The position numbers were made by a program, and so were the translations under genes. Positions 38,314-64,000 of a stretch of DNA of 64,000 nt are shown piece after piece (position 1 is the stretch's first letter; the number at the start of each line of letters is the position of its first letter). The DNA lies in the NCBI RefSeq assembly GCF_004210375.1, contig NC_134828.1:23490400-23554399 (forward strand). The letters are read 5' to 3'. Origin of the DNA: Tachypleus tridentatus. Taxonomy: Eukaryota > Arthropoda > Merostomata > Xiphosura > Limulidae. The notes beneath the pieces were generated by a model. It ran no database searches and was not told the origin of the DNA. It worked only from the letters and a program-made list of their open reading frames with translations.

Positions 38314-38315
38314 TA

Positions 38316-42253: not shown

Positions 42254-42282
42254 CTAAGGGATATATGCGTTAGCTCCCCATA

Positions 42283-42497
42283 ATTTTGAAGCTACACGAA
42301 CACTATCTGCACTAGCCATCCCTAATTTAGCAGTGTAAGACTAGAGGGAAGGCAGGTAGTCATCACCACCCATCGCCAACGAATAGTAGGATTGATCGTA
42401 TTGTTATAACGCCACCACGGCTAAAAGGGCAAGCATGTCTGGTGTGAGGGGGAATCGAACCCGCGACCCTCTGATTACGGGTCTGGCCATGCTGGGT
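42283..42497 (-). mobile_element. SINE-A copy, two internal deletions
   Basis: The CTCTTGGGCTACTC part of the body and part of the head before GTCTGGCCATGCTGGG are missing. Confidence 0.9.
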
Positions 42498-42705
42498 CTT
42501 ATAGGGAAGGTATATAGTCAATTCCATCAACTGTAAACTATTGAGCTATTTTTATCCGGCCAAATAGTGGGACTTAACTGTTACCCTTATAATGCGCTTA
42601 CAACCCTAAAGAGTGGAGCGCACGTTTTTTTCGGTAACGGATCTCGAAGCATAGACCTTCAGATTCGTAGTTCGTAACGCCAACAACTAGGCCACACTCG
42701 AACCG
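42498..42705 (-). mobile_element. SINE-D-like element
   Basis: Abuts the SINE-A. AATAGTGGGACTTAACTGTT and GAGTGGAGCGCACG resemble the 16738 family in reverse orientation. Confidence 0.55.
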
Positions 42706-43493: not shown

Positions 43494-43968
43494 TTGATAA
43501 ATCACTCACCCAAATCTAATATTAAATAAATCAGTCACCCAAACCTAATATTAAATAAATCAGTCACCCAAATCTAAGATTAAATAAATCAGTCACCCAA
43601 ACCTAAGATTAAATAAATCAGTCACCCAAACCTAAGATTAAATAAATCAGTCACCCAAAACTAAGATTAAATAAATCAGTCACCCAAACCTAAGATTAAA
43701 TAAATCAGTCACTCAAATCTAAGATTCAATAAATCAGTCACTCAAATCTAAAATTCAATAAATCAGTCACTCAAATCCAAGATTAAATAAATCAGTCACC
43801 CAAATCTAAGATTCAATAAATCAGTCACTCAAATCTAAGATTCAATAAATCAGTCACCCAAATCTAAGATTCAATAAATCAGTCACTCAAATCTAAGATT
43901 CAATAAATTAGTCACTCAAATCTAAGATTAAATATTTCAGTCACCTAAATCTAAGATTAAATCTTCTG
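43494..43968. repeat. 29-bp tandem array, about 16 copies
   Basis: Unit AAATAAATCAGTCACCCAAA plus CCTAAGATT, with a CCC/CTC variant. AAACCTAAGATT types lie left and AAATCTAAGATTC types right. Confidence 0.96.
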
Positions 43969-44944
43969 TTATTCTCTTTCTTTCTCTCACCGCGATCTAG
44001 TGAAAAACAAACCATCAACTGAAATGAAACTGGAAACTGTATAAACTTATTAGGACGAAGTTGAGGAGTTATGTTTATAATAACAGGTATAGAAACCAAG
44101 TAAAAATTCTCTATAATAGGATTAGTTCCAACTATGCTTTTTATGTTGTATTCTTTCGCTCATTAATTCATTCGGCTGAAGTTCTCTCTCTCTGCTTGTT
44201 AATCTGTAGGTTTCACCATTTTAATTTCCTTAATGTTCTTTTAAAGAAATAGATCGGAATATTTTATTGTTCTGTTTTGAAAAGGTTTTACGACGTAAGG
44301 AGAAAACACGAACATTGTTTTATTAATACACTTCTTAATGTGCCACATTTATTCACTTTTTATTTTCTGGATGAAACTAAGCGTTAGTTTAGTTATATTT
44401 CACGGTTGATAACTGATGTTACATCACTACAAAATATTGTAGACAAGCAAACAAATGAACAGGAAAATACTAGATAAATCTGACTTACACGTATACTGAA
44501 TAATAAGAAAGAAAACTGTTTGGAACAGCTCGTGACTGATATAACAACACATTTTAAACAAATTGTTAATTCTGATGGATCAACTAGCAGCTGTGGAAAT
44601 ATATTTAATAACAAACAAGGATATATGTCTAACTTAAAACTACCAGTAATAAACCAGTGAACAAAACGTTGCACAGTAGAGAAAATCTGGTTTTGAACGA
44701 ACACTATCCTAAATTACCTTAAAAACACATATAGAAAATAACACCTTGAAGTCTGGCAGAGATGTAAAGATACAGTGGAGATACTGTATGATAGGTAATA
44801 AATGGCGCATATATTTTAGTTATGTTACAAATGGACTTTTAGAGTAAATCTAATTTTCAAATTATATTCAAGTATTTATAGGAAGGCCATATGCATTGTT
44901 TGATAGCTGGTGTTTATATGCGTATTAGAAAGGTAATTCTAAAG
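43969..44944. other. Unassigned interval
   Basis: No gene or repeat family recognised. Confidence 0.5.
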
Positions 44945-45207
44945 CGTTTGTTTGTTTTGTTTTGAATTTCGCGCAAAGCTACTCGAGGGCTATCTGCGCT
45001 AGCCGTCCCTAATTTAGCAGTGTAAGACTAGAGGGAAGGCAGCTAGTCATCATCGCCCACCGCCAACTCTTGGACTACTCTTTTATCAACGAATAGTGGG
45101 ACTGACCATAATTTTATAACGCCCCCACGGCTGAAAGGGCGAGCATGTTTTGTGTGACGGGGACTCCAACCCACGACCATCGGATTACGAGTCGAGTGCC
45201 TTAACAG
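44945..45207 (-). mobile_element. SINE-A copy with target duplication
   Basis: Flanked by ATTCTAAAG at 44936-44944 and 45208-45216. The head is 5'-truncated at CCTTAAC, so reverse transcription stopped early. Confidence 0.95.
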
Positions 45208-45216
45208 ATTCTAAAG

Positions 45217-45871
45217 TGATTAAGGTGTGCACTTTTATTATTACCTTAGGCGAAATTATCATATACAGTTATTGATGCGAGACATAAAATCCAACATATT
45301 CAACAAATTAAACTAATTAAAGATTCAATGATACGTAATTTCATTAACAGACTGAAATCATGGTAGTTTCAAGATACGTGCGGGCTGAACAAAATGGTGA
45401 ACTAAAGTCAGCAAAAAACTGGATTCAAGACTGTCTATGGTTTATTATAGAATGATATTCTATTAGAATTCCACATTCAGAATAACATTACCAAACCGTT
45501 TCTCTTCTTATGTGATATTAATAAGCATATAATAATTATTAAGTCATATACTGTATTAGTTAAATAATTTTGGTTGTTTGAACAGAAGTTTTAAAAATTA
45601 TAATTATAAAGAAAATGTTCGATTAATTTTAACATATTATCAATTTTAAATGTTTGTATGTAATGTTATTTACAGATATATGTGTGGATATAACGGTTAC
45701 GTATAAAGCGCAATGGATTGATTATTATTTTTCATTTTCTAACAGGTGTTTGTTTGGTGTCAAACTTGTAAAGACACTGGTTTGGTCATTTTAATAACAA
45801 ATGTAAAAGGTACAGTACTATAGGTTGTTCTTATGGATCTTCAAGTTACATCTATTAATAGGGTTATATTG
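45217..45871. other. Unassigned interval
   Basis: AT-rich; nothing recognised. Confidence 0.5.
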
Positions 45872-45950
45872 TAGACACAACGTTTCGATACCTATGGTGG
45901 GCAGAGCACAAATAACATATTTTTTAGCTTTGCGCTTACAACAAACGAAT
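45872..45950 (+). mobile_element. SINE-B 3' half
   Basis: CGTTTCGATACCTATGGTGG, GCAGAGCACAAATAAC and TAGCTTTGCGCTTA. Confidence 0.8.
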
Positions 45951-46583
45951 AAAAAAGCTTCAACAACAAAAAAATTAAAATTATATTTGCAAATATTTAA
46001 GTATGCGATGAAGTTAAACCATTTAACGCTTTTGTTTATTTGTTCTTCCGCACCATAAAAGTGTTTAGGTTTGACTGATATAAAAATTGAGAATTAAATT
46101 TTTGTTCTACGTGAGTATTTTTTCACTTGGACATAAAGGCTACGTGAGTGTGGCTCCATCTATGCACTATTAGAGTTATTAATTGGCAAAACATTTTTGT
46201 GCCAAAAGTGAGTGAGTACGGACAGTAGCATCTTTCAAATGATTTCATTTTTGTTTGTTTGTTCAAGAACTTTGCCCCAAGTCGTAAAATGACTATGTGT
46301 GCATAACCATTTATGATTTGGAGTTGAAATGATATTGCAAAGATATAAACCGCCAACTCTTGTCTGATTGATTAGTGAGATTTGATTGTCACTTTTACAG
46401 CATACCAATCGTCTATAAATTTTAAGCACATTTATTCAAGTAATGGATTGCAAATAAAAAATCTTCATGCTCGTAGTCAGGAGATATCTAGTTTATTATG
46501 AACGTTTATGTCTGGGCGTTGGGTTTTTATAATTAATATATGATAGAATTTAAATCTGATGACCATTAGTGCTGCAGGGGTCG
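45951..46583. other. Unassigned interval
   Basis: A short SINE-A-like piece in reverse orientation lies at about 46347-46404 (CCGCCAACTCTTGTCTG). The rest is unrecognised. Confidence 0.5.
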
Positions 46584-46593
46584 CACCGAATGA

Positions 46594-46836
46594 TTGTTTG
46601 TTTGTTTGTTTTGGAATTTCGCACAAAGCTACTCGAGAGCTATCTGCGCTAGCCCTCCCTAATTTAGCAGTGTAAGACTAGAGGGAAGGCAGCTAGTCAT
46701 CACCACCCACCGCCAACTCTTGGGCTACTCTTTTACCAACGACTAGTGGGATTGACCGTCACATTATAACGCCCCCACGGGTGAAAGGGCGAGCATGTTT
46801 GGCGCGACCGGGATGCGAACCTCAGATTACGAGTCC
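46594..46836 (-). mobile_element. SINE-A copy with target duplication
   Basis: Flanked by CACCGAATGA at 46584-46593 and 46837-46846. The head is 5'-truncated near the anticodon segment. Confidence 0.96.
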
Positions 46837-47040
46837 CACCGAATGAAAGGGGGTGGGTGGTGAAAACAGTTAATATACGTTTGTATATATCAGTTATAAA
46901 AACAAACAAAACAAAAACGGATATCTTAACGCGGCCATGTTTGTTCTGAAACGATGCATTCAATGTAGCAAAGCAAAACGTAAAACATTTCAGAATATAC
47001 AACAAGTGTTACAGGGAAGACGTAAATATCTCAATAAATA

Positions 47041-47077
47041 TGACCGCCATGGCCAAGTGGTTAGGGTGCTCGATTCG
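47041..47077 (+). mobile_element. SINE-A head fragment
   Basis: GCCATGGCCAAGTGGTTAGG to CTCGATTCGTA, cut at the anticodon loop by the 172-bp dispersed repeat. Confidence 0.75.
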
Positions 47078-47249
47078 TAGGAATATATCAAGATATGACT
47101 AAAGTCACGTACATCTCAAAAAACATGTATAGGTATGTGCGTGTTTATTTATTTTTCTATTTGGAGGTCACACAAGGAATATCTCTTGAGTTTAAGGCCT
47201 AAAGGAAGGAAAATACCAAGGTACTTCCACGTCTTCGGCTAATATAAAT
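47078..47249. repeat. Dispersed 172-bp repeat, inverted partner at 34593
   Basis: Nearly identical in reverse complement to 34593-34765. Lies between two SINE-A heads. Confidence 0.93.
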
Positions 47250-47492
47250 GGCCCGGCATGGCCAGGAGGTTAAGGCACTCGACTCGTAATCTGAGGGTCG
47301 CGGGTTCGAATCCCTGTCACATGCTCGACCTTTCATCTGTGAGGGAAGTGTAATATAACAATAAACGCCACTATTCGTGGGTTAAAGAGTAGCTCAGGAG
47401 TTTGCTGTGGGTGGTGATGACCAGCTGCCTTCTCTCTTGCCTTACTCTGCTAAATTAGGGACGGCTAGCGTAGTTAGCTCTCGTGTAGCTTT
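47250..47492 (+). mobile_element. SINE-A copy, tail replaced
   Basis: Head GGCCCGGCATGGCC. The tail ends at GTGTAGCTTT where Penelope sequence begins. Confidence 0.9.
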
Positions 47493-48411
47493 CACAAACT
47501 TTAAATCACCCACACTGGACTATACATTTCTTGGGACTCAGCACATGAAATAAAACAAAAACTCAACATACTAAAAAACCAAATAAACACAGCCATAAAA
47601 CTATGCTCACCAGATAAAATTAAAGATGGATTAGACAAAATAAAACAATACTTCATCAACATCAATAAGTTTCCTCCACAAACCATAGAAAACATTTTAC
47701 GCACACATCTAGACAAAAAGCAAAATCAACTAACAAAAGTAAATATATCCCACGATTTAAAAATCACGAAACCATATACTGCTGCATACCATATATTCCC
47801 GACATCACCAGAAAAATAACCAACATTTGGCAAAAATTAGCAACAAAATATGGCATTCCAATTAATACCAAATTCATTCAAAAACCAGGCACAAAACTGA
47901 GGTCTATACTATGTAAAAACTACACTGACAAACACCAAACCAACATTATTTATAAAATACAATGTGCTAACTGCTACGACTTCTATATTGGAGATACAAG
48001 TAGAAAAAGGGAAACCAGATTCAAAGAACACAAAAAGTCACCTTCACAAGTTTTCGAACACTGCAAGTCAAATAAACACAACATAACCATAGAAAACACC
48101 CAAATACTAAATAAAGAAACAAACACAAAATTAAACAAGCCTTACTTATACAACAACTCAAGCCCAAAATAAACCAATACAAAGGAACACCTTTATACCT
48201 ATATTAATAAATATAATCAAACATCTAAGCACGCCCTCTAGAGTCCTACACTCAGTTACACAACTCCCTTCAAACATGTGGTCAGCTATTGGTCAGTTAC
48301 CTCTTTCTTTCTTTGTGAACCTGACGATGACAGAAGAAGGTCGTAACGTTGTTTGCTCCTCTGCATAAAAAACTTTCTCAACCCAAACGAGCCGTTTTTA
48401 GATATATAAAT
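47493..48411 (+). mobile_element. Penelope-like element, 5'-truncated
   Basis: Contains the region between reverse transcriptase and endonuclease, a GIY-YIG endonuclease relic, and a 3' region that parallels 36510-36804. It ends at the same GAGCCGTTTTT terminus (near 48390). At the hammerhead-like positions it has CTGACGA (48321-48327) and GTAAC (48343-48347), so both core elements are mutated. Confidence 0.88.
47530..48175 (+). pseudogene. Penelope GIY-YIG endonuclease relic
   Basis: Upstream, one frame reads NILKNQINTAIKLCSPDKIK and KFPPQTIENILRTHLDKK, the linker after the RT domain. After a frameshift near 47790 a second frame reads NIIYKIQCANCYDFYIGDTS and RKRETRFKEHKK. It shows the YKI and YIG strands, a CxxC pair typical of Penelope endonucleases, and the catalytic-type Arg of RKxETR. 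Frameshift and stop codons make it inactive as it stands, and the reverse transcriptase is missing. Confidence 0.87.
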
Positions 48412-48442
48412 CTTTAAATATTTCTGTAAGGTTGGAAAATTC

Positions 48443-48533
48443 CTGTGTATTTTAATGTAATTTCTCTGTATTTTAATGTTATTTCTCTGTATTTTAATGT
48501 AATTTCTATGTATTTTAATGTAATTTCTATCAC
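48443..48533. repeat. 21-bp tandem repeat, about 4-5 copies
   Basis: TGTATTTTAATGTAATTTCT repeated, A/T-rich. Confidence 0.92.
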
Positions 48534-48682
48534 GTTGACATGTATTACTTTTTGTATAAAAACGGTTCAAGGTGAAGAAATAAATAAAAGTTATCTATTT
48601 GAACAGATTACTCATAGATGATGTAAACCTGGTTACACAGGTGCTCTTTCTATTGGAAGCTTAAAATGTTTTACGATGGAAA

Positions 48683-49000
48683 AGTTATGTATAATGTGCG
48701 TGGTTCTTCTAACCGTTAGAGATTACTTACATTAGTTACGTACAATGTGCGTGGTTCTTCGAACCGTTAGAGTTTACTTACACTAGTTATGTACAATGTA
48801 CGTGGTTTTTCTAACCTTTAGAGTTTACTTACACTAGTTACATACTATGTGCGTGGTTCTTCTAACCGTAAGAGTTTACTTACACTAGTTATGTGCAGCG
48901 TGCGTGATTTTTCTAACCGTTAGAAATTACTTACACTAGTTACGTACAATGTGCGTGGTTCTTCTAACCGTTAGAGATTACTTACACTAGTTATGTACAA
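48683..49000. repeat. 51-bp tandem repeat, about 6 copies
   Basis: Unit GTTATGTACAATGTGCGTGG plus TTCTTCTAACCGTTAGAG and TTACTTACACTA. Unrelated to the 51-bp array at 1797-2537. Confidence 0.95.
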
Positions 49001-49431
49001 AGATTGATTTAAAGGTACTTATGAGGAATCAATATTCTAAATAATCCAATTCTTTTGTTATTTACATCTAACAAAAGGTTTCTTGTCAACTTGTATTAAT
49101 TACAATAAGGATATTTCGTGTGGACATGTGAAAACTGAAACATTTAAAAGTCCGAATTCTCACTCATACATCAAGAATAAAAGAATTCTACAGTAGGCGT
49201 TGCTCTTAAACACAGAGTTTGGTACTTCGTGTTACATAACTTGTGTTAGTAAACAGCTGGAACAGTGGGAAAAAGGTTTGTGTTACTTGTCAAGAAGTAA
49301 CACATGTTTGTGTTGTAAAGATAGTGTAGATTTCATCCATTTTTAACCGTTGACAGTTCCTTGTTGTATAGACAGTGTGGATCTCAATCGTTTTAAACAG
49401 TTGCCACAGAAAGAGAGACTTGTCAAGCGAT
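49001..49431. other. Unassigned interval outside the left inverted arm
   Basis: No gene or repeat family recognised. Confidence 0.5.
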
Positions 49432-50779
49432 TATATGTTAGAAAAAAATACAATATAGCTTTCCAAGATTTCCAAAAAGCGCGGGAACTTGTTATTTAGA
49501 AGAAAGCTGTTGAACAAATAAGAAATACCGGTTTATGTGATGGAGATCTAATCACAGTATATATCTGTATGTTTACCAACATCACACAACACTTACGTTA
49601 AATGTAACTTCTCATAATCTATGTTAATGACAATTTCAATACGTGTAAATATAGATGGAATACGTTCGGACGTTTCTTATCTCGATAACACTTAATCCTG
49701 ATCTTTGATACAGATAAATAAGTGTTCAAATAATATCATAGCCCTCAATATCAATATTTAATTAAGATAAATAATTGTTCGTATAATATCATGACCCTCC
49801 ATATCAGTCTGATAAAGCTATAGAAATGCCAAAATAATATAATAATCTTCCGTATCAGTCTCTGTGAAAGCTAAGGAAGATTTCTAATAATAGTCATTAT
49901 AACATTCTATATCGATTTCTGACAAAGGTAAAAATATAATGAAATAATATTAAGTGACACACGCACACAGAGGTTTTTTATGACATCTGTAATACGTAAA
50001 CGACGCAGAATAAGCTACAAATAAGAAAGACAAAGCCAAGCTCTATACAAATAAGAAAGACAAAGCCAAGCTCTATTGGAAGAGTCTTTGATCAACAAAT
50101 TAATTTCCTTTTGTAAACAAGTATTGAAATAAAGTCTTTGAGAGAAACCGAAACCATAAAATTACGTAACTTGATACTGAAGATTTTTCTTCGTAAAGCC
50201 TTAACTGTAATCAAATCTTAAGGATAAATCAGAATATGAAAGACTTCTTTGCCACCAGCACGTACGAACAGGCCCACGTGACTTTAACAGTGTTACGGCT
50301 GCTGTTGTTTTGTTACTTTTGAAACTGAGCAGATGTCTCGTATCCATAGTAACGTTATTGTATTCAAGGGGAAAAAGTAAATATACAAAATAGTTACGTA
50401 TTAAGTTGATATCAGAGATGAGGTTTGTGAACCTGGAGGCTAAACCAACGAAGAGTCTTAAAAAACATTTCGGTTCATATTAATCACATTAGAAAACATT
50501 TCTGTGACCCGTATCTTACAGTAGAATATGTGGATGTAATCTTCACTGTCACGTTACAGGACTTGCACGGACTTTTACACTATATTCACACTGGGAAGCC
50601 TACATGTGACCTTCACATTATATTAACACAGGGAAGCCTACATGTGACCTTCACATTATATTAACACAGGGAAGCCTGCATGTGACCTTCACGTTATATT
50701 CACACTGGGAAGCCTACATGTGACCTTCACATTATATAAACACAGGGAAGCCTACATTGATCTTCACGTTATATTCACA
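49432..50779 (+). repeat. Left arm of a long inverted repeat
   Basis: Matches the reverse complement of 62596-63905 throughout. Over about 390 bases compared by eye (from 50221) I count about seven differences. The arm includes a two-copy AATAAGAAAGACAAAGCC repeat near 50020-50075 present in both arms, a degenerate repeat of about 65 bp at 49720-49960, and a 38-bp minisatellite at its inner edge. No coding frame is evident. Confidence 0.95.
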
Positions 50780-50820
50780 CTGGGAAGTCTGCATTTGACC
50801 TTCACATTATATTCACATTA
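50576..50820. repeat. 38-bp minisatellite at the inner edge of the left arm
   Basis: Unit CACAGGGAAGCCTACATGTG plus ACCTTCACATTATATT, about six copies. The partner block at about 62596-62760 has fewer copies. Confidence 0.93.
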
Positions 50821-50837
50821 GAAAGTTAAAGAAATGT

Positions 50838-52081
50838 CAAGTCATTTCAAGTCACCCCACAGCATCTCAATGGGATAAAGATCTGGGCTTTGACTCGGCC
50901 ATTCCAGGTCTCTCTATTTCTTAGTTTTCAGCCAGTCCTTGGTGGATTTACTGGTATGTTTTGAGTCATTGTTGTGTTGCAGGGTCCAGTTCCGCTTCAG
51001 CTTTAATTTTCTTACAGATGGTCTCACATGATCCTCAAGCACCCTCTGATACACAGTAGAATTCATGGTGGATTCTATGATTGTGAGATGTCCAGGTCCT
51101 GCTGCAGTAAAGCAGCCCCAAACATGACACTTCCACCTCCATGCTTCACAGTTGGTATGAGGTTCTTTTCCTGGAATGCCGTATTTGGTTTACGCCAAAC
51201 ATGTCCTCTGTTCTGGTGTCCAAATAATTCAATTTTGGACTCATCTGTCCAAAGAACATTATACCAGAAGTCCTGGTCTTTGTCTACATTCTCTCTGACA
51301 AACTTCAGTCTGGCCTTGATGTTTCTCTTAGAGAGCAAAGGTTTCCTCCTTGCACACCTCCCATGCAAGTTAAACTTGTGCAGTCTCTTTCTGATTGTAA
51401 ATGCATGCACTTTCACATCAACAGTAGCCAGAGCCTGCTGTAGGTCCCGTGATGACATGTTAGGGTGTTTGGAGACCTCTTTTAGCATCTTGCGGTCTGC
51501 TCTCGGGGTGAACTTGCTTGGACGACCAGACCTGGTAATGTTGGCAGTTGTTTTGAAAGCCCTCCACTTGTTGACTATTTTCCGGACAGTGGAATGGCTG
51601 ATTTCAAAATCTTTTGGGATCTTTTTAAAACCCTTACCAGACTCATAAGCTGCTACAATTTTCTTTCTGAAGGCCTCAGACAGCTCTTTTGCTCTCACCA
51701 TGATGCTCACTCTCACTTCAACAGTCAGGAGCACACCAAACTATATGTCTGAGGTTTAAATAGGACAAGCCTCATTAAAAATGCTGAGTAACAATCTAAT
51801 AATCATGTGCACCTGGTGTGATACACCTGTGTGTGAGTTGAGCCATTTTAAGTGGGAATAAATGTGGAGGTGTCCTAACTTTTTCCTCAGTTAGAATATG
51901 CATTTTTGTAGAATTACATTTACAAAAGATCTGGAAAAGTGTTTTCTTTAGTTTTAATTGTTTAGTTATATTCCTATAACCTCTCAGTATTGTTAAAATT
52001 GAGATTAAATATCTATATATCCAAAAATGTTACAAAAATACACAGGATTTCATAGGGTGTCCTAACTTTTTCACACGACTG
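50838..52081 (-). mobile_element. Tc1-type DNA transposon, C-terminal end truncated
   Basis: The 5' terminus is intact: CAGTCGTGTGAAAAAGTTAG reading inward from 52081, next to TA. A second GTGTCCTAACTTTTTC block about 180 bp inside (near 51870) gives the double-repeat (IR/DR) layout of Tc1 elements. The other terminus is missing; the element stops just after the transposase catalytic glutamate region. Confidence 0.92.
50840..51701 (-). pseudogene. Tc1-type transposase, near-intact relic
   Basis: From MVRAKELSEAFRKK the frame is open for about 208 residues: a paired-like helix-turn-helix DNA-binding region, the GRPSKF linker (residues 59-64), and catalytic Asp153 in WTDESK. A one-base deletion near 51124 (GTCATGTTTGG where one more G is expected) shifts the frame. 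The second catalytic Asp (about 50965) and the third-position Glu (IEMLWGDLK, about 50865) follow in the shifted frame. A TAG stop lies at about 50918, probably from a TGG. The C-terminus and 3' inverted repeat are missing. The sequence style resembles Tc1 families I associate with fishes. It is far better preserved than the neighbouring mariner. Confidence 0.93.
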
Positions 52082-52082
52082 T

Positions 52083-52205
52083 ATATCAATATCTGATAAT
52101 GTTAAAGAAATGTTAAAATAATGTTATAAACTCTTATATCAATCACTAATAAAGCTAAATAAATGTTCAGGTATTATCATAACTCTCCATAAAAGTCTCT
52201 GATAG
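52083..52205. repeat. Extra copies of the arm-internal degenerate repeat
   Basis: ATATCAATCACTAATAAAGC and TGATAATGTTAAAGAAATG resemble the ATATCAGTCTGATAAAGC repeat inside the left arm (49720-49960), same orientation, and lie just beyond the Tc1 end. Confidence 0.7.
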
Positions 52206-52209
52206 TATG

Positions 52210-52321
52210 CGTTTTATTATGGCTAAACCACATTGGGCTATCTGCTGAGCTCACAGAGGCGAAGCGAATCTCTGATTTTAGTGTTATAAATCTGTAGACT
52301 TACCGCTATACTAGCGGGGAG
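52210..52321 (-). mobile_element. SINE-C copy
   Basis: GGCTAAACCACATTGGGC tail segment, CTATACTAGCGGGG head; the B-box is mutated (GAAGCGAATCTC). Confidence 0.85.
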
Positions 52322-52322
52322 C

Positions 52323-52662
52323 ATCTCGAATAGTAACAAATAGTGAATCTAAATTGTCTGATTTCCTTGTGTGATTAAGACTAGCTTTATTCTTTTTTTT
52401 ATCGCGTGAGGCTGAAAAGTAAAAGAGTGAAATAAACGTTCTGTCTTTGTGTTGTAATGGTTACGACAACCTTGCGTTAGCGTGGGTACACCCTGGCCCT
52501 GCGTTACAATGGTTGTAAGAAAGGTTGTTGTTGATGTGAAACGTTTTTTCGCTTTTATATATTATAAACATGAAACTTAGATTCTTTTATTTTTTAAAGT
52601 ATATACAAAACTTAAATACCGTTACTTACGGGAACTGTCTGAAATCAGTTAAGTTTAGAAAT
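52323..52662. other. Unassigned interval
   Basis: Just outside the mariner left end, TTACTTACGGGA (52622-52633) repeats a word from the mariner terminus. Otherwise unrecognised. Confidence 0.45.
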
Positions 52663-53870
52663 CAGGTCATCCCTTAAGTAATGTCCGATTTGAGGTTCAA
52701 AAAAAGAGAAAGGATTTCAAACGCTTTTAGTGTTATTTAATCAATAACACTGTGTTAAACAAATTATGTTCCTGGATAGTATGTGTTATTTCTTAATTGC
52801 TTATGTTCTAAAAGTACAGAAAATGGCCATTATTCCCTTCAAACTTTGGTTTTGTGACCTGGATAATGAAATTTAGAAATTAACCTATTTTATATGTAAA
52901 AACGGGCAAATTTGCACATTTTCATTTACATAAGGTCTGAATAAAACAACATATGAATCAAGATTTACATGTATACAAAAATGTTTAGAAGTGAGTAGTT
53001 TCTCGAGATTTACGACTGTAATGTAAATCACTTTCACGACGTATCAGACCCCAAATATAGTCTCGGCATTAAACTTCGTTAGACCAAGATATCTGATCAA
53101 GCCACTGAGGTTTCTTTGGTTGGGGTAGTGTGGGTTTCTCTCACCAGCTGCACCTCTGAAATTGTAATCTGGATCTGGATTTAAGCTATTATCTGCGGCG
53201 CTTAACATTTCTATAATATATCTATTTTTCATCTCCAGTCACTAACCTGTTCAAAAAGAGTGAGTTACGTTCACGAGAGTGCAGAGAAGTGTAAATGTCC
53301 ACTCTTGCTCTAAGGTTGGCTTCTGTCAAATGATGGGGACCCATTTCTAAGTTTTGACACCTTTCTAAGATGTTGCAGATGACGATGAACTGTTAAATAG
53401 GTTGAATTAACCTTCTGTGCTAGTTCTTTAACTGTTACAACCCAATCTTCATCAAGAGCAGCCAGTAGCAAGTCATCATTAAACTCAGCAGGATGACCTG
53501 AACGTGGCGCATCACTTAAGCTCTAGTTACCTGATCTGAACTTTTGAAACCACCTTTGACATTTTCATTCATTAAGACACTCCGCACCATAAACACCTTG
53601 AATGTTTCGTGTAGTTTCTGCTGCACTATTGTCTTTATTAAACTCATAAAGTATTATATGTTTAATGTGCTCCTCAGACACATCCATCTTCATAAGGGTT
53701 TATTTGATTAACGATCTGAAAAAGTGGAGTTGGGTTAGTTTCTTTTATTTGTCTGAACATTTTTATACACGTTCTACTATATATTTTAGTCATTAAAGCC
53801 TTCTACAAAGACAGAAATAATGATGCACTTTTTATATTACATTTTGAGACATTACTTACGGGATGACCTG
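52663..53870 (-). mobile_element. Mariner element, degraded
   Basis: Terminal inverted repeats of about 27 bp start CAGGTCATCCC-TAAGTAATG at both ends with a few mismatches. The length of 1.2 kb fits a mariner. TA is clear only at the right flank. Transposase orientation is minus. Confidence 0.88.
53050..53687 (-). pseudogene. Mariner transposase relic
   Basis: Begins MDVSEEHIKHIILYEFNKDN, the first helix-turn-helix of mariner transposases, then RWFQKFRSGN, GHPAEFNDDLL and VHRHLQHL (second helix-turn-helix). Further on, in another frame, LVTGDEK marks the first catalytic Asp block. Stops replace codons at several points (after CLNE, after RSGN, after DEK), there are frameshifts, and the C-terminal catalytic half is largely deleted. 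It is related to the SETMAR-type transposase by motif style only. Clearly older than the Tc1 beside it. Confidence 0.9.
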
Positions 53871-54297
53871 ATATCCTTAAGAAAACGTCTATATTGTTAG
53901 AAGCAGATGCGATATATACGACTGTTAAACTCTTCAAAACTTGTCATTACAGAAGTTGTTATCGTTCATGTTAATCCAGAATGATGTTGGAACTTCTTAT
54001 AAAACGATATTCTGTATGTAAGAGACGAAGAGTAGTTAGTTAGATCACAAGCATGTTCTGAGTTGTTTTTTTTTCATGTATATACAAGTCTTCCATACCC
54101 TGTTAAACCTCTGAGAAACTAAGTCTGGATTATTTGTGAATAAAGAGAACCGATAAAACAGAATCATTATCAGCTCCTGTGATTCAATGAAATATTTTCT
54201 GAAGGAAGTTTATGTGAGGTTATCATGTCTCACGAAACGTCTGCCTGTATCTTAGATAGACGGGTAAGTAGACAACAGATGGACAAACGAGCAGATT
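53871..54297. other. Unassigned interval
   Basis: No gene or repeat family recognised. Confidence 0.5.
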
Positions 54298-54420
54298 GGT
54301 TTGTTTTATAGTTAAGCGTATAGCTGCACAATGGGCTGTCTAAGCTCTGCCCACTACGACTATCGAGACGCAGTTTCTAGCGTTTAAGTCCGCAGACATG
54401 CCGCTTTGACAGTGGAGGAC
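54298..54420 (-). mobile_element. SINE-B copy
   Basis: ATGGGCTGTCTAAGCTCTGC core and GACAGTGGAGG head. Confidence 0.83.
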
Positions 54421-54570
54421 AACAGACTGGCAGGTGTGCTGTTACAAAAAGTTGTATGTATATTTCATATAAAGACGAATAAACAAAGAGATGATCAGAT
54501 AGATATATGGATATATGTTTACTCTGATACAAAATTGTTTCTGTTTCATAGACTGAACATCGGCGAATGG

Positions 54571-54841
54571 TTTGTTTCTTTTGTTGTGAATTTCACGTAA
54601 AGCTACACGAGGGCTATCCGCGCTAGCCGTCCCTAATTTAGCAGTGTAAGACTATAGGAAAGGCAGCTAGTCATCACCACCCACCGCCAACTCTTGGGCT
54701 GCTCTTTTACCAACGAATTGACCGTGACATTATAACGCCCCCACGGCTGAGAGGGCGAGAATATTTGGCGCGACGGGGATGCGAACCCGCGACCCTCAGA
54801 TTACGAGTCGCACGCCTTAACACGCTTGGCCATGCCGGGCC
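54571..54841 (-). mobile_element. SINE-A copy
   Basis: Tail TTTGTTGTGAATTTCACG, head CTTGGCCATGCCGGGCC. A 13-bp body deletion follows ACCAACGAA. Confidence 0.94.
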
Positions 54842-55273
54842 AAACACCAAAGGATAGATACATATTTATTAAAGTGCATACATTTAATGTTGACATAACA
54901 AAGAGAACATTTAAATTATAGCAGAAATACGCGCCCTCTGGACAAGTATAACTGTTAGTTCCTGTGGAAAACTACTGGGTTTGCGCTCTTTTCTGGAATT
55001 GTCTGACAGTTCCACAGCGATGTACGTATACGCGACATTCAATGATGTTCACCATCCATGAGAAAATGGTTTTATTGATATTTTAGTATAAAAAGGAGCT
55101 ATCATCACAGCATTACATTAGAGAGTAGATTTTATTAAAGTATTTAGTTGTAGACACAGTCATCAACGAAAGTACTTTGTTCTCTGTCGTAATTCTCATG
55201 AGATTTTCACTAAAGAAAAACAAATACTTTTAAGTTTTTTATTGTTTTATATTTAAAACTTACTTCTATTTGT
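54842..55273. other. Unassigned interval
   Basis: No gene or repeat recognised. Confidence 0.5.
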
Positions 55274-55391
55274 TCCCCGCTAGTACAGCCGTAACTCTAG
55301 GGATTTACAACGCTAAAATTGGCGGTTTGATTCCTCTCGGTGGACTCAGCAGACAGCACGATGTGGCTTTGCTATAAGAAAACACACACAT
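55274..55391 (+). mobile_element. SINE-C copy
   Basis: CCCCGCTAGTACAGCC head, GGCGGTTTGATTCC B-box arm, ATGTGGCTTTGCTATAAG tail and ACACAC end. Confidence 0.92.
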
Positions 55392-55618
55392 ATACTTTTA
55401 AGTGTTTGTGACTTTTATTGGTAAGATCTGAAACATATAATTTTTGTGAACATTTTAACTGCTTTATTTATTGCTCGACTATAAATATACTGGCTAGTTA
55501 TAAATAATATTACTCAGCTATGATTGGTGGCGATCCGTGCGGTAGTTTCTGAGATCCGAGTTTTGGATATGCACATCGCAAGCTCAAATTTAATGAGATT
55601 TCGCATCAAGTATTCTTC

Positions 55619-55695
55619 AGAGGAGGTTGGAGGTATCAATGTATGTCCCTTTGCAGCAGGAGGTTGGAGGTATCAATGTATGTCCCTTTGCAGCA
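55619..55695. repeat. Two-copy 38-bp tandem duplication
   Basis: GGAGGTTGGAGGTATCAATG plus TATGTCCCTTTGCAGC occurs twice. Confidence 0.95.
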
Positions 55696-55934
55696 TTGCT
55701 CCAGTATAGGACCCGATATAAGTTATTCAAGTCAACTCGACTTAGGCTGTAGTTAGCTTTGTTCATTGGTTTCTGTGCGAGAGCTTTCTCTGTCAGACTT
55801 ACGTTTCGTAAGTATTACGTACGCTTTTTTTTTTTTTTTTACTCTTGACAACACACAGTTACGTAGATTAATTTCACTAAGACATTTCGAATGGAGGTTC
55901 GTATTATCTAATTATTTTAACTTGTTCATCAAAA

Positions 55935-56074
55935 AATCTGAACCAGAGCGTTGTTCACGAAAGAATCTAAACCAGGGCGTTGTTCACAAAAAATATCTGA
56001 ACCAGGGCGTTGTTCACAAAAATATCTGAACCAGGGCGTTGTTCACAAAAATATCTGAACCAGGGCGTTGTTTA
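55935..56074. repeat. About 30-bp tandem repeat, 4-5 copies
   Basis: ATCTGAACCAGGGCGTTG plus TTCACAAAAAT; nearly identical copies. Confidence 0.95.
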
Positions 56075-56858
56075 CCATCAAAGCTGCACCTTCCTAGAAT
56101 GATCGTGACATCTGGTATACTGAAACAAGAAACCAGAAAAACAAAATGGATGGAAATGGGTTTTAACGTTTTTCATTTTAAACTTGTTTCTGTTTTGCTA
56201 TGAAATATTATTGGTTGACGAATTGGTAATTAAAAAACAAAGATAACATTCGAATTAAATTAAACTAATTTCTTTTTTTTTTTCTAAATTCAAAATATAC
56301 TTTAATAATATGAATACGAGACTTTCGAATTGGGCTTAAGATGCCGCAAACCTTACACCTATTACTCAGGAATTATTAATAAGATAGAGAATTTTTTGGG
56401 GGACTTTACCCCATCTCCAGAGTGGTCTATGCTACCGGCTTTTTTTTTTTCATTTTAAATAAACTTTAATCACTAGTTTTTCCTCATTTGAAGTTTTTGT
56501 TTGCGAAAGTAAAGTTTTATATTGTAATGGCTATTTGTCAAGTGGTGTAGACTAGACTGATGCGAGACAGGAGTTGTGGTACGTTGAGTACAAAAATTAT
56601 GTCATCCGCTGAGTCTGAGGGTTATAAAAACTTCCTGAAATTTGAAAGTCAAGAGAAATATGACAGACTCACTCATACTGTAATATCAGTTTATTATTAC
56701 TAGCTATTTAAAATTCTTTGAGTTTCTTTTTTCTTAAATATCTATAAATCCGATGGATCCTCTTAAGTTGTAACTTTGAGCTTCATTTTTCCAGAACGTC
56801 TGTCGTTTTTTTTACGTTAATATCAAAACTAAGTTTAACCTAAAATTTTAAAAATGTA
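56075..56858. other. Unassigned interval
   Basis: T-rich runs at 56271-56284 and 56441-56450. No gene recognised. Confidence 0.5.
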
Positions 56859-57540
56859 GAGGGGGTTATCAAAAAAGTGGCCAATCTTGAAAATGTTGTC
56901 CATTTGTTATATCTTTTATTAGATAACAGAAAAATATGTAAGATTATATGTTTTAAGAACACACTCAACGAGATCTGTTCAAATATAATCTCAAAACCCA
57001 ATTTTTAACACTGGCTTTTGTAAATACGTGAAGTGTTCATGATTTTAAGTTACGTTTTCTCATAAATAGTGTTGTGCACCTCCTACAGTTTCTTAGATCA
57101 TTTTACTCTAATTAGCCTACAAAATGGTTTTAAAAGTTTTTTAGTTGTGGTGTCGTTAAAATAGAAATAAGAGAATCGATGTTATTGAATGACCAGGTCA
57201 ACCACCTGGTGTTAATACAACTGAAAACTTATGGGCTGTAGAGTTAAACTGATTAACGAAAGATTGCAAGCCAAACACGGAGGATGAACTTTTTGATGTA
57301 CTCAAAGAAAGATGGCAGTAAATCACTCAATGTTTGTGAGAAAACGTAACTTAAAATCATGAACATTTCACGTATTTACAAAAGCCAGCGTTAAAATTAG
57401 GATTTGAGATCATATCTGAACAGATCTCGTTGAGTGTGTTATAAAAATACACAGTTTTTTTATCTTTTTCTGTTATATAATAAAAGATATAACAAATTAA
57501 CAATATTTTCTAGGTGGAGCCACTTTTTTGTCTACCCCTG
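56859..57540 (+). mobile_element. Long-inverted-repeat Tc1/mariner-type element
   Basis: Inverted repeats of roughly 200 bp (56859-57065 against 57335-57540), with outer ends sharing AAAAAAGTGG and TA at both flanks (56857-56858, 57541-57542). Between them a plus-strand stretch reads TENLWAVELN, then after a stop LTKDCKPNTEDELFDVLKER, the C-terminal end of a Tc1-type transposase (NPIENLW motif). It is therefore a deletion derivative of an autonomous parent. Confidence 0.85.
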
Positions 57541-57542
57541 TA

Positions 57543-57857
57543 CTTATTTAAAATGAGACGTAAATCTTCTTTCATAAATATTAACCCTCTCTTGTCTTAT
57601 TATTTAAAAATAGATTAACTGTAAAAGTAATATTATAATTACTTTGTCATTCATTTAAGTATTGAGTGAAAATTTTTAATTACGTCATATGTGATAGAAA
57701 ACAATTAAATAGTAATCCTTCTTCTGAAGCTTCGGTCAGTCTCAGACGACTTCCAACTGTTTGTGAAGTTCATTTCTAACATTCTTTAAAACACAGCTTT
57801 ATTTAAACATATCAGTACCATAGAGAGACCCTATGTTCCAGTTTGTCAGTTTTGATA
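57543..57857. other. Unassigned interval
   Basis: No gene or repeat family recognised. Confidence 0.5.
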
Positions 57858-57985
57858 AACTGTCCCCAAGTGGCACAACAGTTTGTCTGCGGACTTATAC
57901 TGCTAAAAATCGAGTTTCGATACACATGGTGTGCAGAACACAGATAACCTTTAGTGTAATTTTGTGCTCAATAACAAACAACAAC
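57858..57985 (+). mobile_element. SINE-B copy
   Basis: CCCCAAGTGGCACAACAG head, GAGTTTCGATACAC arm, GCAGAACACAGATAACC core. Confidence 0.88.
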
Positions 57986-58317
57986 AGCAATGACGCCATC
58001 TGTTATTAACTCTGTTCGTACCCTCTTCAACAGTCTAGAAGACAAAGGTCGTTCTTTTAATTTTTATTAGCTGAACACGACTATAGCAGGCTCGACAATG
58101 TTTTCGGGTTTATACAGTAACTGTTTTCTATCACTTAAACAACGTGTCATCTTGAGTGCTTGTTTTCTTTTACTGGTTTTTCTGAACCGAACTCCACAAT
58201 ACACGTGTCAGTGTTTCACATTCTTCTGACTTGTCTAATGACTTCAAACTTACCTCAGTTTTCGATCAATCTCGTATAGATTTTCGTTCTTCGGTTCATT
58301 TACAACCTTAATTCCTC
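57986..58317. other. Unassigned interval
   Basis: Nothing recognised before the satellite starts. Confidence 0.5.
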
Positions 58318-61300
58318 TAGATTTCTTCTTTTTGTTGTAGAGTGAGATCATCATCGTCTGTTTACCAATCCACACTTTGCCATATCTGGATCTTGTGAAA
58401 CAATAGAAGTTTCTTCATTTTGTTCTAGAGTGAGATCATCATCCTCTGTTTACCAATCCACACTTTGCCATATATGGATCTTGTGAAGCAATAGAAGTTT
58501 CTTCATTTTGTTCTAGAGTGAGATCATCATCCTCTGTTTACCAATCCACACTTTGCCATATATGGATCTTGTGAAGCAATGTAAGTTTCTTCATTTTGTT
58601 CTAGAGTGAGATCATCATCCTCTGTTTACCAATCCACACTTTGCCATATCTGGATCTTGTGAAGCAATAGAAGTTTCTTCATTTTGTTCTAGAGTGAGAT
58701 CGTCTTCCTCTGTTTACCAATCCACACTTTGCCATATCTGAATCTTGTGAAGCAATAGAAGTTTCTTCATTTTGTTCTAGAGTGAGATCATCATCCTCTG
58801 TTTACCAATCCACACTTTGCCATATCTGAATCTTGTGAAGCAATAGAAGTTTCTTCATTTTGTTCTAGAGTGAGATCATCTTCCTCTGTTTACCAATCCA
58901 CACTTTGCCATATCTGGATCTTGTGAAGCAATAGAAGTTTCTTCATTTTGTTCTAGAGTGAGATCATCATCCTCTGTTTACCAATCCACACTTTGCCATA
59001 TCTGGATCTTGTGAAGCAATAGAAGTTTCTTCATTTTGTTCTAGAGTGAGATCATCTTCCTCTGTTTACCAATCCACACTTTGCCATATCTGGATCTTGT
59101 GAAGCAATACAAGTTTCTTCATTTTGTTCTAGAGTGAGATCATCATCCTCTGTTTACCAATCCACACTTTGCCATATCTGGATCTTGTGAAGCAATAGAA
59201 GTTTCTTCATTTTGTTCTAGAGTGAGATCATCATCCTCTGTTTACCAATCCACACTTTGCCATATCTGGATCTTGTGAAGCAAAAGAAGTTTCTTCATTT
59301 TGTTCTAGAGTGAGATCATCATTCTCTGTTTACCAATCCACACTTTGCCATATCTGAATCTTGTGAAGCAATAGAAGTTTCTTCATTTTGTTCTAGAGTG
59401 AGATCATCATTCTCTGTTTACCAATCCACATTTTGCCATATCTGAATCTTGTGAAGCAATAGAAGTTTCTTCATTTTGTTCTAGAGTGAGATCATCTTCC
59501 TCTGTTTACCAATCCACACTTTGCCATATCTGGATCTTGTGAAGCAATAGAAGTTTCTTCATTTTGTTCTAGAGTGAGATCATCATCCTCTGTTTACCAA
59601 TCCACACTTTGCCATATCTGGATCTTGTGAAGCAATACAAGTTTCTTCTTTTTGTTGTAGAGTGAGATCATCATCCTCTGTTTACCAATTCACACTTTGC
59701 CATATCTGGATCTTGTGAAACAATAGAAGTTTCTTCTTTTTGTTGTAGAGTGAGATCATCTTCCTCTGTTTACCAATTCACACTTTGCCATATCTGGATC
59801 TTGTGAAACGATAGAAGTTTCTTCTTTTTGTTCTAGAGTGAGATCGTCTTCCTCTGTTTACCAATCCACACTTTGCCATATCTGGATCTTGTGAAGCAAT
59901 AGAAGTTTCTTCATTTTGTTCTAGAGTGAGATCATCTTCCTCTGTTTACCAATCCACACTTTGCCATATCTGAATCTTGTGAAGCAATAGAAGTTTCTTC
60001 TTTTTGTTGTAGAGTGAGATCATCATCCTCTGTTTACCAATTCACACTTTGCCATATCTGGATCTTGTGAAACAATAGAAGTTTCTTCTTTTTGTTCTAG
60101 AGTGAGATCGTCTTCCTCTGTTTACCAATTCACACTTTGCCATATCTGGATCTTGTGAAACAATAGAAGTTTCTTCTTTTTGTTCTAGAGTGAGATCGTC
60201 TTCCTCTGTTTACCAATTCACACTTTGCCATATCTGGATCTTGTGAAACAATAGAAGTTTCTTCTTTTTGTTCTAGAGTGAGATCGTCTTCCTCTGTTTA
60301 CCAATCCACACTTTGCCATATCTGGATCTTGTGAAGCAATAGAAATTTCTTCATTTTGTTCTAGAGTGAGATCATCTTCCTCTGTTTACCAATCCACACT
60401 TTGCCATATCTGGATCTTGTGAAGCAATAGAAGTTTCTTCTTTTTGTTGTAGAGTGAGATCATCTTCCTTTGTTTACCAATCCACACTTTGCCATATCTG
60501 GATCTTGTGAAGCAATAGAAGTTTCTATATTTTGTTCTAGAGTGAGGTCATCTTCCTCTGTTTACCAATCCACACTTTGCCATATCTGGATCTTGTGAAG
60601 CAATAGAAGTTTCTTCTTTTTGTTGTAGAGTGAGATCATCTTCCTCTGTTTACCAATCCACACTTTGCCATATCTGGATCTTGTGAAACAATAGAAGTTT
60701 CTTCTTTTTGTTCTAGAGTGAGATCGTCTTCCTCTGTTTACCAATCCACACTTTGCCATATCTGGATCTTGTGAAGCAATAGAAATTTCTTCATTTTGTT
60801 CTAGAGTGAGATCATCATCCTCTGTTTACCAATCCACACTTTGCCATATCTGGATCTTGTGAAGCAATACAAGTTTCTTCATTTTGTTCTAGAGTGAGAT
60901 CATCATCCTCTGTTTACCAATCCACACTTTGCCATATCTGGATCTTGTGAAGCAATAGAAGTTTCTTCATTTTGTTCTAGAGTGAGATCATCATCCTCTG
61001 TTTACCAATCCACACTTTGCCATATCTGGATCTTGTGAAGCAAAAGAAGTTTCTTCATTTTGTTCTAGAGTGAGATCATCATTCTCTGTTTACCAATCCA
61101 CACTTTGCCATATCTGGATCTTGTGAAACAATAGAAGTTTCTTCTTTTTGTTGTAGAGTGAGATCATCATCCTCTGTTTACCAATCCACACTTTGCCATA
61201 TCTGGATCTTGTGAAACAAAAGAAGTTTCTTCTTTTTGTTGTAGAGTGAGATCATCTTCCTCTGTTTACCAATCCACACTTTGCCATATCTGGATCTTGT

Positions 61301-62198
61301 GAAGCAATAGAAGTTTCTTCTTTTTGTTGTAGAGTGAGATCATCTTCCTCTGTTTACCAATCCACACTTTGCCATATCTGGATCTTGTTAAGCAATACAA
61401 GTTTCTTCTTTTTGTTGTAGAGTGAGATCATCTTCCTCTGTTTACCAATCCACACTTTGCCATATCTGGATCTTGTGAAACAATAGAAGTTTCTTCTTTT
61501 TGTTGTAGAGTGAGATCATCTTCCTCTGTTTACCAATCCACACTTTGCCATATCTGGATCTTGTGAAACAATAGAAGTTTCTTCTTTTTGTTGTAGAGTG
61601 AGATCATCATCCTCTGTTTACCAATCCACACTTTGCCATATCTGGATCTTGTGAAGCAATAAAAGTTTCTTCTTTTTGTTGTAGAGTGAGATCATCATCC
61701 TCTGTTTACCAATCCACACTTTGCCATATCTGGATCTTGTGAAACAATAGAAGTTTCTTCTTTTTGTTGTAGAGTGAGATCATCTTCCTCTGTTTACCAA
61801 TCCACACTTTGCCATATCTGGATCTTGTGAAGCAATAGAAGTTTCTTCTTTTTGTTGTAGAGTGAGATCATCTTCCTCTGTTTACCAATCCACACTTTGC
61901 CATATCTGGATCTTGTTAAGCAATACAAGTTTCTTCTTTTTGTTGTAGAGTGAGATCATCATCCTCTGTTTACCAATCCACACTTTGCCATATCTGGATC
62001 TTGTGAAACAATAGAAGTTTCTTCTTTTTGTTGTAGAGTGAGATCATCTTCCTCTGTTTACCAATTCACACTTTGTCATATCTGGATCTTGTGAAGCAAT
62101 AGAAGTTTCTTCTTTTTGTTGTAGAGTGAGATCATCTTCCTCTGTTTACCAATTCACACTTTGCCATATCTGGATCTTGTGAAGCAATAGAAGTTTCA
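58318..62198. repeat. 88-bp satellite, about 44 copies, with 528-bp higher order
   Basis: Unit words: GTGAGATCATCATCCTCTG, TTTACCAATCCACACTTTGC and CATATCTGGATCTTGTGAAG. Spacing is exactly 88 bp through the array. Two main variants (CATTTTGTTCTAG and CTTTTTGTTGTAG) are intermixed, the second prevailing right of about 61.1 kb. A rare AAGCAATACAAG-type variant recurs at multiples of 528 bp. It lies inside the long inverted repeat, about 400 bp from the right arm. Confidence 0.97.
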
Positions 62199-62595
62199 AT
62201 TCTTAAACCAGTATTCTTTTTCCACTGCCTTCAGGTTTTGAAACTTGATCAAAACAAGTGAATCGCATGTTTTCCAATGTGAAGACTGGATTCTACATCT
62301 TTACTTAATATTAATTAGAAACTTTCACGATCATTCATCTCGTTAATACAACTAGTACTGTGTTTTTGTGACAGGCCACGCGTCATGACGAATTATTTAT
62401 ATTACAAAACTGGGTAACCAAATGTTTTGAAGTCCTATGATTAGTTTTAAATTATCTGGCAGTTATTTCTGTGTATTAATACGTGGACAAAAAATCTGTT
62501 TTCCTTCAGATGTTTTCTTTTATATAAATCTGTACACACTAGATAAGTAAGCATCCACTAGCCTGTCAGCTAAGCTGAAACATGCATAGTCCCGA
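62199..62595. other. Unassigned spacer between satellite and right arm
   Basis: No gene or repeat recognised. Confidence 0.5.
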
Positions 62596-63905
62596 ATGTG
62601 AATATAACGTGAAGATCAATGTAGGCTTCCCTGTGTTAATATAATGTGAAGGTCACATGTAGGCTTCCCAGTGTTAATATAACGTGAAGGTCACATGCAG
62701 GCTTCCCTGTGTTAATATAATGTGAAGGTCACATGTAGGCTTCCCAGTGTGAATATAGTGTAAAAGTCCGTGCAAGTCCTGTAACGTGACAGTAAAGATT
62801 ACATCCACATATTCTACTGTAAGATATGGGTCACAGAAAGGTTTTCTAATGTGATTAATATGAACCGAAATGTTTTTTAAGACTCTTCGTTGGTTTAGCC
62901 TCCAGGTTCACAAACCTCATCTCTGATATCAACTTAATACGTAACTATTTTGTATATTTACTTTTTCCCTTGAATATAATAACGTTACTATGGATACGAG
63001 ACATCTGCTCAGTTTCAAAAGTAACAAAACAACAGCAGCCGTAACACTGTTAAAGTCACGTGGGCCTGTTCGTACGTGCTGGTGGCAAATAAGTTTTTCA
63101 TATTCTGATTTATCCTTAAGATTTGATTACAGTTAAGGCTTTACGAAGAAAAATCTTCAGTATCAAGTTACGCGATTTTATGGTTTCGATTTCTCTCAAA
63201 TACTTACATTCAATACTTGTTTACAAAAGGAAATTAATTTGTTGATCAAAGACTCTTCCAATAGAGCTTGGCTTTGTCTTTCTTATTTGTATAGAGCTTG
63301 GCCTTGTCTTTCTTATTTGTAGCTTATTCTGCGTCGTTTACGTATTACAAATGTCATAAAAAACCTCTGTGGGCGTGTGTCACTTAATATTGTTTCATTA
63401 TATTTTTACCTTTGTCAGAAATCGATATAGAATGTTATAATGACTATTATTAGAAATCTTCCTTAGCTTTCACAGAGACTGATATGGAAGATTATTATAT
63501 TATTTTGGCATTTCTATAGCTTTATCAGACTGATATGGAGGGTCATGATATTATACGAACAATTATTTATCTTAATAAATATTGATATTGAGGGCTATGA
63601 TATTATTTGAACAGTTATTTATCTGTATCAAAGATCAGGATTAAGTGTTATCGAGATAAGAAACGTCCGAACGTATTCCATCTATATTTACACGTATTGA
63701 AATTGTCATTAACATAGATTATGAGAAGTTACATTTAACGTAAGTGTTGTGTGATGTTGGTAAACATACAGATATATACTGTGATTAGATCGCCATCACA
63801 TAAACCGGTATTTCTTATTTGTTCAACAGCTTTCTTCTAAATGACCAGTTCCCGCGCTTTTTGGAAATCTTCAAACTTTATATTGTTGTATTTTGTATAA
63901 TGTAT
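62596..63905 (-). repeat. Right arm of the long inverted repeat
   Basis: Reverse complement of 49432-50779. Both arms carry the same internal two-copy repeat (63240-63325 here) and the same inner-edge minisatellite. Homology fades at about 63905, where the DNA outside the two arms becomes unrelated. Confidence 0.95.
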
Positions 63906-64000
63906 AAACACCCTCAGTCAGCGGTTTTAGATTTTTATATCTCTTTCATGTTAGCGTTTTGAAAAAGTGACATGAAAATAATGCATTCAAAAGTGTGTTT

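What the first reader, a model, noticed from the sequence alone, without database searches (positions are those of the whole stretch)
49432..63905. 14.5-kb structure bounded by 1.3-kb inverted arms
The left arm (49432-50779) and right arm (62596-63905) are inverted copies, about 98% identical over the roughly 390 bases compared by eye, with abrupt outer and inner edges. The enclosed 11.8 kb carries a satellite and several transposons but no host gene. Candidates are a foldback-type or other giant terminal-inverted-repeat element, an inverted segmental duplication homogenised by gene conversion, or a misassembly. If transcribed across an arm pair, it could yield long double-stranded RNA.
Basis: partly seen in the sequence, partly recalled or inferred. 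Interest (0 to 1): 0.8.

Follow-up and report, generated by a model that had tools for sequence, protein, structure and literature searches.

The report
Local inverted duplication plus assembly duplicate
Two mirror-image 1.3-kb stretches really do face each other in this animal chromosome, but they look like an ordinary local inverted copy of DNA rather than a giant mobile element, and a seemingly independent second pair nearby is probably the other parental version of the same place left in the assembly by mistake.

Summary
The inverted arms are real: 49432-50817 and 62595-63904, about 97% identical, the only inverted pair over 1 kb in 119.6 kb compared with itself. The genome search returned two more arm copies, again an inverted pair, 739 kb away. 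That pair is not an independent insertion: it sits in a 74,760-bp contig with a 500-N gap at each end, which matches this locus inverted, mostly at 97.2-98.5% in long blocks, far beyond the arms and up to the last base before one gap. It is best read as an unpurged haplotig, the second allele; read depth was not available. So the haploid genome probably has two arms, carried by both alleles, and a misassembled pair is unlikely. Against a transposon: no further arm copies found, no target duplication, no transposase of its own recognised. Arms differ by 1.7-2.0% in their core, alleles by 0.3-0.9%; no site requires gene conversion. Best explanation: an ordinary inverted duplication of otherwise single-copy, repeat-bearing DNA by break repair, older than the allele split. 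No function is supported.

The parts
49432..50817 (+). left arm of the inverted pair, outer edge to end of the 38-bp minisatellite
62595..63904 (-). right arm, inverted copy of the left arm
49679..49950 (+). old, degenerate 53-bp tandem repeat inside the left arm (5.1 copies, 64% match); its counterpart lies in the right arm
50570..50817 (+). 38-bp minisatellite forming the inner end of the left arm (6.6 copies)
62597..62768 (-). 38-bp minisatellite forming the inner end of the right arm (4.6 copies)
50818..50844 (+). 27-bp stretch between the left arm and the truncated Tc1-family copy; shares 13 bases with the 53-bp-repeat DNA at 52101
   Evidence: that it belongs to the 53-bp repeat is judged by eye, and one search also lists 9- to 12-base matches elsewhere
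50845..52086 (-). Tc1-family DNA transposon copy lacking its low-coordinate end (about 390 bp including one terminal repeat, judged against one other copy); a high-copy family, unrelated to the arms
52082..52186 (+). two further copies of the 53-bp repeat, in the same orientation as in the left arm
58322..62197 (+). 88-bp satellite, 44 copies here, about three in the allelic contig
62198..62594 (+). DNA between satellite and right arm, found here and in the allelic contig only
   Evidence: query 62198-62597
31761..64000 (.). part of the window covered by the inverted, probably allelic contig; the match begins at 31761 (opposite the N500 gap) and continues past the window end to C4:23593394

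Best explanation
The structure is a local, dispersed inverted duplication. One 1.3-kb stretch of otherwise single-copy, minisatellite-bearing DNA was copied in reverse orientation about 12 kb away. The likely route is repair of a break by template switching, or a small inversion with staggered breaks; this route is inferred, not shown. It predates the split of the two alleles, since both assembled copies carry it, and the arm cores have since diverged by about 2% without a detectable need for gene conversion. The second pair of arms 739 kb away is probably the other allele of the same locus, kept in the assembly as an inverted haplotig between two gaps. No function is shown.
For: Arms found in four places only, two per assembled copy, plus one 48-bp match inside the left arm's own minisatellite. 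The second pair lies in a stretch C4:22743443-22818202 bounded by 500-N runs on both sides; the match to the window ends on the last base before one of them (22818202), while the 119.6 kb around the window holds no N. It is collinear and inverted from there to C4:22762973, matched at C4:23593394. Window DNA beyond the match (29000-31700) finds only itself at full length; the other listed rows are repeat-sized (40 of 12,857 candidates scored). Substitutions run from 0 to 5.4% per 500 bp, as alleles or paralogues with varied history would; the block at the gap end holds 69 indel events in 8.7 kb, 48 of one base. Left-right arm difference is 17-20 of 1,004-1,006 sites; allelic difference is 3 of 1,007 (left) and 9 of 1,004 (right); 12 fixed, 12 private and 0 conversion-requiring sites. 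No target duplication. The left inner neighbourhood holds more copies of the 53-bp repeat found in the arm, as expected if the left arm is the older copy.
Against: No read depth, Hi-C or k-mer data are held, so haplotig versus true inverted segmental duplication rests on gaps, collinearity and divergence pattern. About 20 of the 69 indel events fall in one imperfect tandem repeat at 37.3-37.6 kb, so poor polishing is only one reading. The mean difference of 1.46% is above the 0.8% heterozygosity reported for another horseshoe crab (PMC7210998, passage). Satellites differ strongly (44 versus about 3 copies), several satellite blocks fall to 78-93%, and about 280 bp of the contig (22774250-22774531) match best elsewhere. 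The polarity of the arms is weak: the Tc1 copy is cut off 27 bp from the left arm's inner edge, which could mean that the left arm arrived later.
Confidence: 0.82

Rival explanations
1. The second copy is a true, fixed inverted segmental duplication of at least 55 kb on the same chromosome, and each copy contains the arm pair.
For: It is assembled as part of the chromosome scaffold, 704 kb away; satellite lengths differ between the copies.
Against: 500-N gaps on both sides of a 74.8-kb stretch and a match that stops on the last base before a gap. Gaps between duplicate pairs on one scaffold are listed as a mark of false duplication (PMC9516828, passages).
Confidence: 0.12
2. A small (about 12-kb) inversion with staggered breaks duplicated the 1.3-kb breakpoint sequence at both ends. 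This is a sub-case of the best explanation, so its odds overlap with those above.
For: [quoted passage not shown] No target duplication.
Against: The missing Tc1 end, which such a model could have left at the right outer flank, is not found in the 119.6-kb stretch compared. Without an outgroup, native and new junctions cannot be told apart.
Confidence: 0.25
3. A foldback-type or other giant terminal-inverted-repeat transposon.
For: Long inverted arms with tandem repeats at their inner ends and abrupt edges.
Against: No further arm copies in the searched 2.17-Gb genome (the tool calls its repeat counts lower bounds), no target duplication, no transposase recognised other than in a truncated copy of a separate, high-copy Tc1 family, in the 10 of 27 enclosed frames scanned.
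Confidence: 0.04
4. The arm pair in the window is itself a misassembly.
For: Satellite-rich neighbourhood; a gap-bounded duplicate contig on the same scaffold.
Against: Two assembled copies show the same pair and the same edges apart from minisatellite length, and the arms differ by 12 changes fixed in both.
Confidence: 0.03

Closest known systems
Inverted duplications from fold-back or template switching (PMC3907307, PMC10766186: titles and abstract openings in a search listing only)
   Same: inverted copy of DNA; a spacer and abrupt junctions are features recalled of this class
   Different: here present in both alleles with a spacer of about 11.8 kb; the mechanism was not observed
Inversion-breakpoint duplications from staggered breaks (PMC7584159, passages seen)
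   Same: inverted duplicates at both ends of a segment
   Different: no uninverted state is available here to show an inversion
Heterotype false duplications in assemblies (PMC9516828, passages seen)
   Same: diverged alleles kept as two copies, with gaps between them
   Different: applies to the second copy at 22.79 Mb, not to the arm pair itself; read depth not tested
Foldback transposons (recalled)
   Same: long inverted arms with internal tandem repeats
   Different: no further copies in the genome search, no target duplication

Membership tests
Giant terminal-inverted-repeat / foldback transposon | multiple copies with the same arm edges at unrelated sites | tested here: not met
   four places, two of them in a probably allelic contig (tool counts of repeats are lower bounds)
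Giant terminal-inverted-repeat / foldback transposon | target-site duplication at the outer edges | tested here: not met
   longest free match 4 bp, mean of 500 random pairs 5.3 bp; in register only the 4-bp ATAT/TATA
Giant terminal-inverted-repeat / foldback transposon | own transposase between the arms (autonomous elements) | tested here: inconclusive
   10 of 27 enclosed frames of 60 aa or more scanned; Tc1-type domains only in a truncated copy of a separate high-copy family, and sub-cut-off helix-turn-helix matches at 53310-53522
Dispersed inverted duplication | two inverted copies of otherwise single-copy DNA | tested here: met
   if the second pair is allelic
Dispersed inverted duplication | ancestral single-copy state in a relative | not testable with these tools
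   the tool states that this genome has no relatives here
Staggered-break inversion | uninverted order of the enclosed segment in a relative | not testable with these tools
   no relatives held
Unpurged haplotig (heterotype false duplication) | gaps between the two copies on the scaffold | tested here: met
Unpurged haplotig (heterotype false duplication) | the contig is collinear with the other copy throughout | tested here: met
   from 22818202 to 22762973, apart from satellite length and about 280 bp at 22774250-22774531; the 19-kb satellite end was not matched
Unpurged haplotig (heterotype false duplication) | half read depth, one-copy k-mers | not testable with these tools
   no reads held

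The most novel reading that the evidence does not exclude
The arms are kept as an inverted pair because a transcript across them makes a long hairpin that feeds small-RNA silencing. The evidence does not exclude this. The allelic difference of the left arm (4 of 1,120 sites) is below the regional mean of 1.46%, that of the right arm (12 of 1,120) only a little, and windows lower than both occur elsewhere in the block.
Probability: 0.03. Interest if true: 0.45.

Novelty: new member of a known kind. Interest (0 to 1): 0.12.

Why it matters
It also flags a probable false duplication of about 55-75 kb in a chromosome-scale assembly of what is probably a horseshoe crab. The locus could serve as an example of a dispersed inverted duplication whose relative age can be read from two assembled alleles.

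Tried and rejected
Giant transposon: rejected on copy number and lack of a target duplication; the lack of a transposase of its own rests on 10 of 27 enclosed frames. Giant palindrome centred between the two copies: the 60 kb at the mirror centre shows no inverted self-match over 306 bp. Staggered inversion carrying the missing Tc1 end to the right flank: that end was not found in the 119.6-kb stretch. A 62-bp repeat at 64.7 kb as relative of the arm repeat: it matched only itself. Rfam families in 46000-64000: none at the gathering score. tRNA genes in the window: none by ARAGORN with the bacterial code. Genes in the arms: no Pfam match in the 3 of 8 arm frames of 60 aa or more that were scanned. 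Species from papers: the listings (5 papers; 8 of 55 listed) and passages of one paper gave no assembly that I could match.

Full report
OBSERVATION. One search finds three slightly overlapping inverted blocks covering 49432-50719 and 62619-63904 at 95-97%. One search gives one inverted match of 1,299 bp at 96.7% and shows that it is the only inverted pair over 1 kb among 7 pairs of at least 300 bp in 119.6 kb compared with itself. In two other stretches there are 3 such pairs in 140 kb (the longest being the second arm pair) and 1 in 60 kb. The outer edges are at 49432 and 63904. The inner edges lie at the end of a 38-bp minisatellite (6.6 copies left, 4.6 right), at 50817 and 62595 as read by eye.

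A SECOND PAIR, AND WHY IT IS PROBABLY THE OTHER ALLELE. The window is C4:23490400-23554399 of a 2.17-Gb genome in 205 contigs. The arm matches four places over nearly its full length: the two here and two at C4:22790119-22791343 and 22799514-22800817, again inverted; a fifth row is a 48-bp match inside the left arm's own minisatellite. Two pieces of the arm give the same four places and no others. At first sight this is a second element with the same edges. But the match does not stop at the arm edges: window DNA from 31761 outward aligns inverted to C4:22818202 downward, at 97.2-98.5% in most long blocks and at 78-93% in several satellite blocks. One search shows that 22818203-22818702 is a run of 500 N, so the match ends on the last base before a gap; the 119.6 kb around the window hold no N. 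One search finds another run of 500 N at 22742943-22743442. The second copy is thus a stretch of 74,760 bp between two gaps. Its far non-satellite part (22762973-22764989) matches C4:23591394-23593394, still inverted, at 95%. Its first 19 kb is a 38-bp satellite that found no partner in what I held, and about 280 bp at 22774250-22774531 match best elsewhere in the locus. The window DNA just beyond the match (29000-31700) finds itself as its only full-length match; other rows are repeat-sized (40 of 12,857 candidates scored). Substitutions run from 0 to 5.4% per 500 bp. The 8.7-kb block at the gap end holds 69 indel events, 48 of one base (31 deletions in the contig, 17 in the window), about 20 of the 69 in one imperfect tandem repeat at 37.3-37.6 kb. 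Gaps between duplicate pairs on one scaffold are listed among the marks of false duplication (PMC9516828, passages). I read the contig as an unpurged allele. Two points are against a simple reading: the mean difference of 1.46% is above the 0.8% heterozygosity given for another horseshoe crab (PMC7210998, passage), and read depth, the decisive test, is not held.

CONSEQUENCE. Two assembled copies carry both arms with the same edges apart from minisatellite length, so a misassembled pair is unlikely; and if the second is an allele, the haploid copy number of the arm is two. The copies differ in satellite length: 44 of the 88-bp unit here, about three in the other.

AGE AND CONVERSION. The arm core compared has 1,008 alignment columns, 5 of them with gaps; the outermost bases and the minisatellite were left out. 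Left and right arms differ at 17-20 of 1,004-1,006 sites (1.7-2.0%); the two left alleles differ at 3 of 1,007 and the two right alleles at 9 of 1,004. Of 24 variable sites 12 separate left from right in both alleles, 3 vary in the left arm only, 9 in the right arm only, and none requires conversion between arms. Private changes could hide conversion, so this is absence of need, not proof of absence. The mean allelic difference over 572 overlapping windows of 1,121 bp outside the arms is 1.46%. The duplication is thus older than the allele split here. In one search's wider limits the alleles of the left arm differ at 4 of 1,120 sites and those of the right arm at 12 of 1,120; neither is exceptional, since windows down to 0.09% occur elsewhere in the block.

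NOT A TRANSPOSON. There is no target duplication: the longest free match between the outer flanks is 4 bp, against a mean of 5.3 bp in 500 random pairs. Of 27 frames of at least 60 aa inside the structure, 10 were scanned with Pfam; four frames elsewhere in the window were scanned too. Transposase domains over the cut-off appear only in the Tc1-family copy at 50845-52086; a frame at 53310-53522 has sub-cut-off helix-turn-helix matches. The Tc1 family is high-copy (7,034 candidates at first look, 40 scored), and this copy lacks about 390 bp including one terminal repeat, judged against one other copy. No Rfam family reached its gathering score in 46000-64000.

WHICH ARM IS OLDER. The outer half of the arm holds an old 53-bp tandem repeat (5.1 copies at 64%). 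Two more copies in the same orientation lie just beyond the Tc1 copy at 52082-52186, and the 27-bp stretch at 50818-50844 shares 13 bases with that DNA, a weak sign since matches of 9-12 bases occur elsewhere. The search found no such repeat next to the right arm. This favours the left arm as source. Against it, the Tc1 copy is cut off next to the left arm, as if something arrived there later; the missing part is nowhere else in the 119.6-kb stretch. The point is open.

MECHANISM. Shown: an inverted copy of DNA without further copies found, abrupt edges, no target duplication, presence in both assembled copies. Inferred: origin by break repair with template switching, or by a small inversion with staggered breaks, a model described in PMC7584159 (passages). 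An outgroup would separate these.

ORGANISM. Pfam coagulin (PF02035) matches 19 places, all over the cut-off, and rings in 0 of 14 control genomes. That coagulogen is specific to horseshoe crabs, and that a genome with large contigs numbered up to C13 may be a Tachypleus, is recalled and not tested.

VERDICT. A true observation with an ordinary explanation. The apparent confirmation elsewhere in the genome is probably an assembly duplicate. Interest is low.

Noticed in passing
C4:22743443-22818202 (L006, L007, L010, L011, L016-L019, L032, in part): A 74.8-kb stretch between two 500-N gaps that looks like an unpurged haplotig of C4:23.522-23.593 Mb.
   Followed up: yes
window 58322-62197: An 88-bp satellite with 44 copies here and about three in the probably allelic contig: a strong length difference, or a collapse in one.
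   Followed up: partly
window 11524-12921, strand -: Open frame of 465 aa with a bZIP domain (Pfam bZIP_2, 5.9e-16); its look of a giant/NFIL3-type factor is recalled.
   Followed up: no
window 47505-48172: Two overlapping frames without a Pfam match; the C-terminal part looks like a Penelope-type GIY-YIG end (recalled, by eye).
   Followed up: no
G000:C7:19216972-20544518: A cluster of coagulin-family exon matches, apparently several copies, apart from the matches at C11:9.02 Mb.
   Followed up: no
C4:22743443-22762379: A 19-kb array of a 38-bp satellite at the end of the haplotig contig; its unit differs by eye from the 38-bp repeat of the arms.
   Followed up: no
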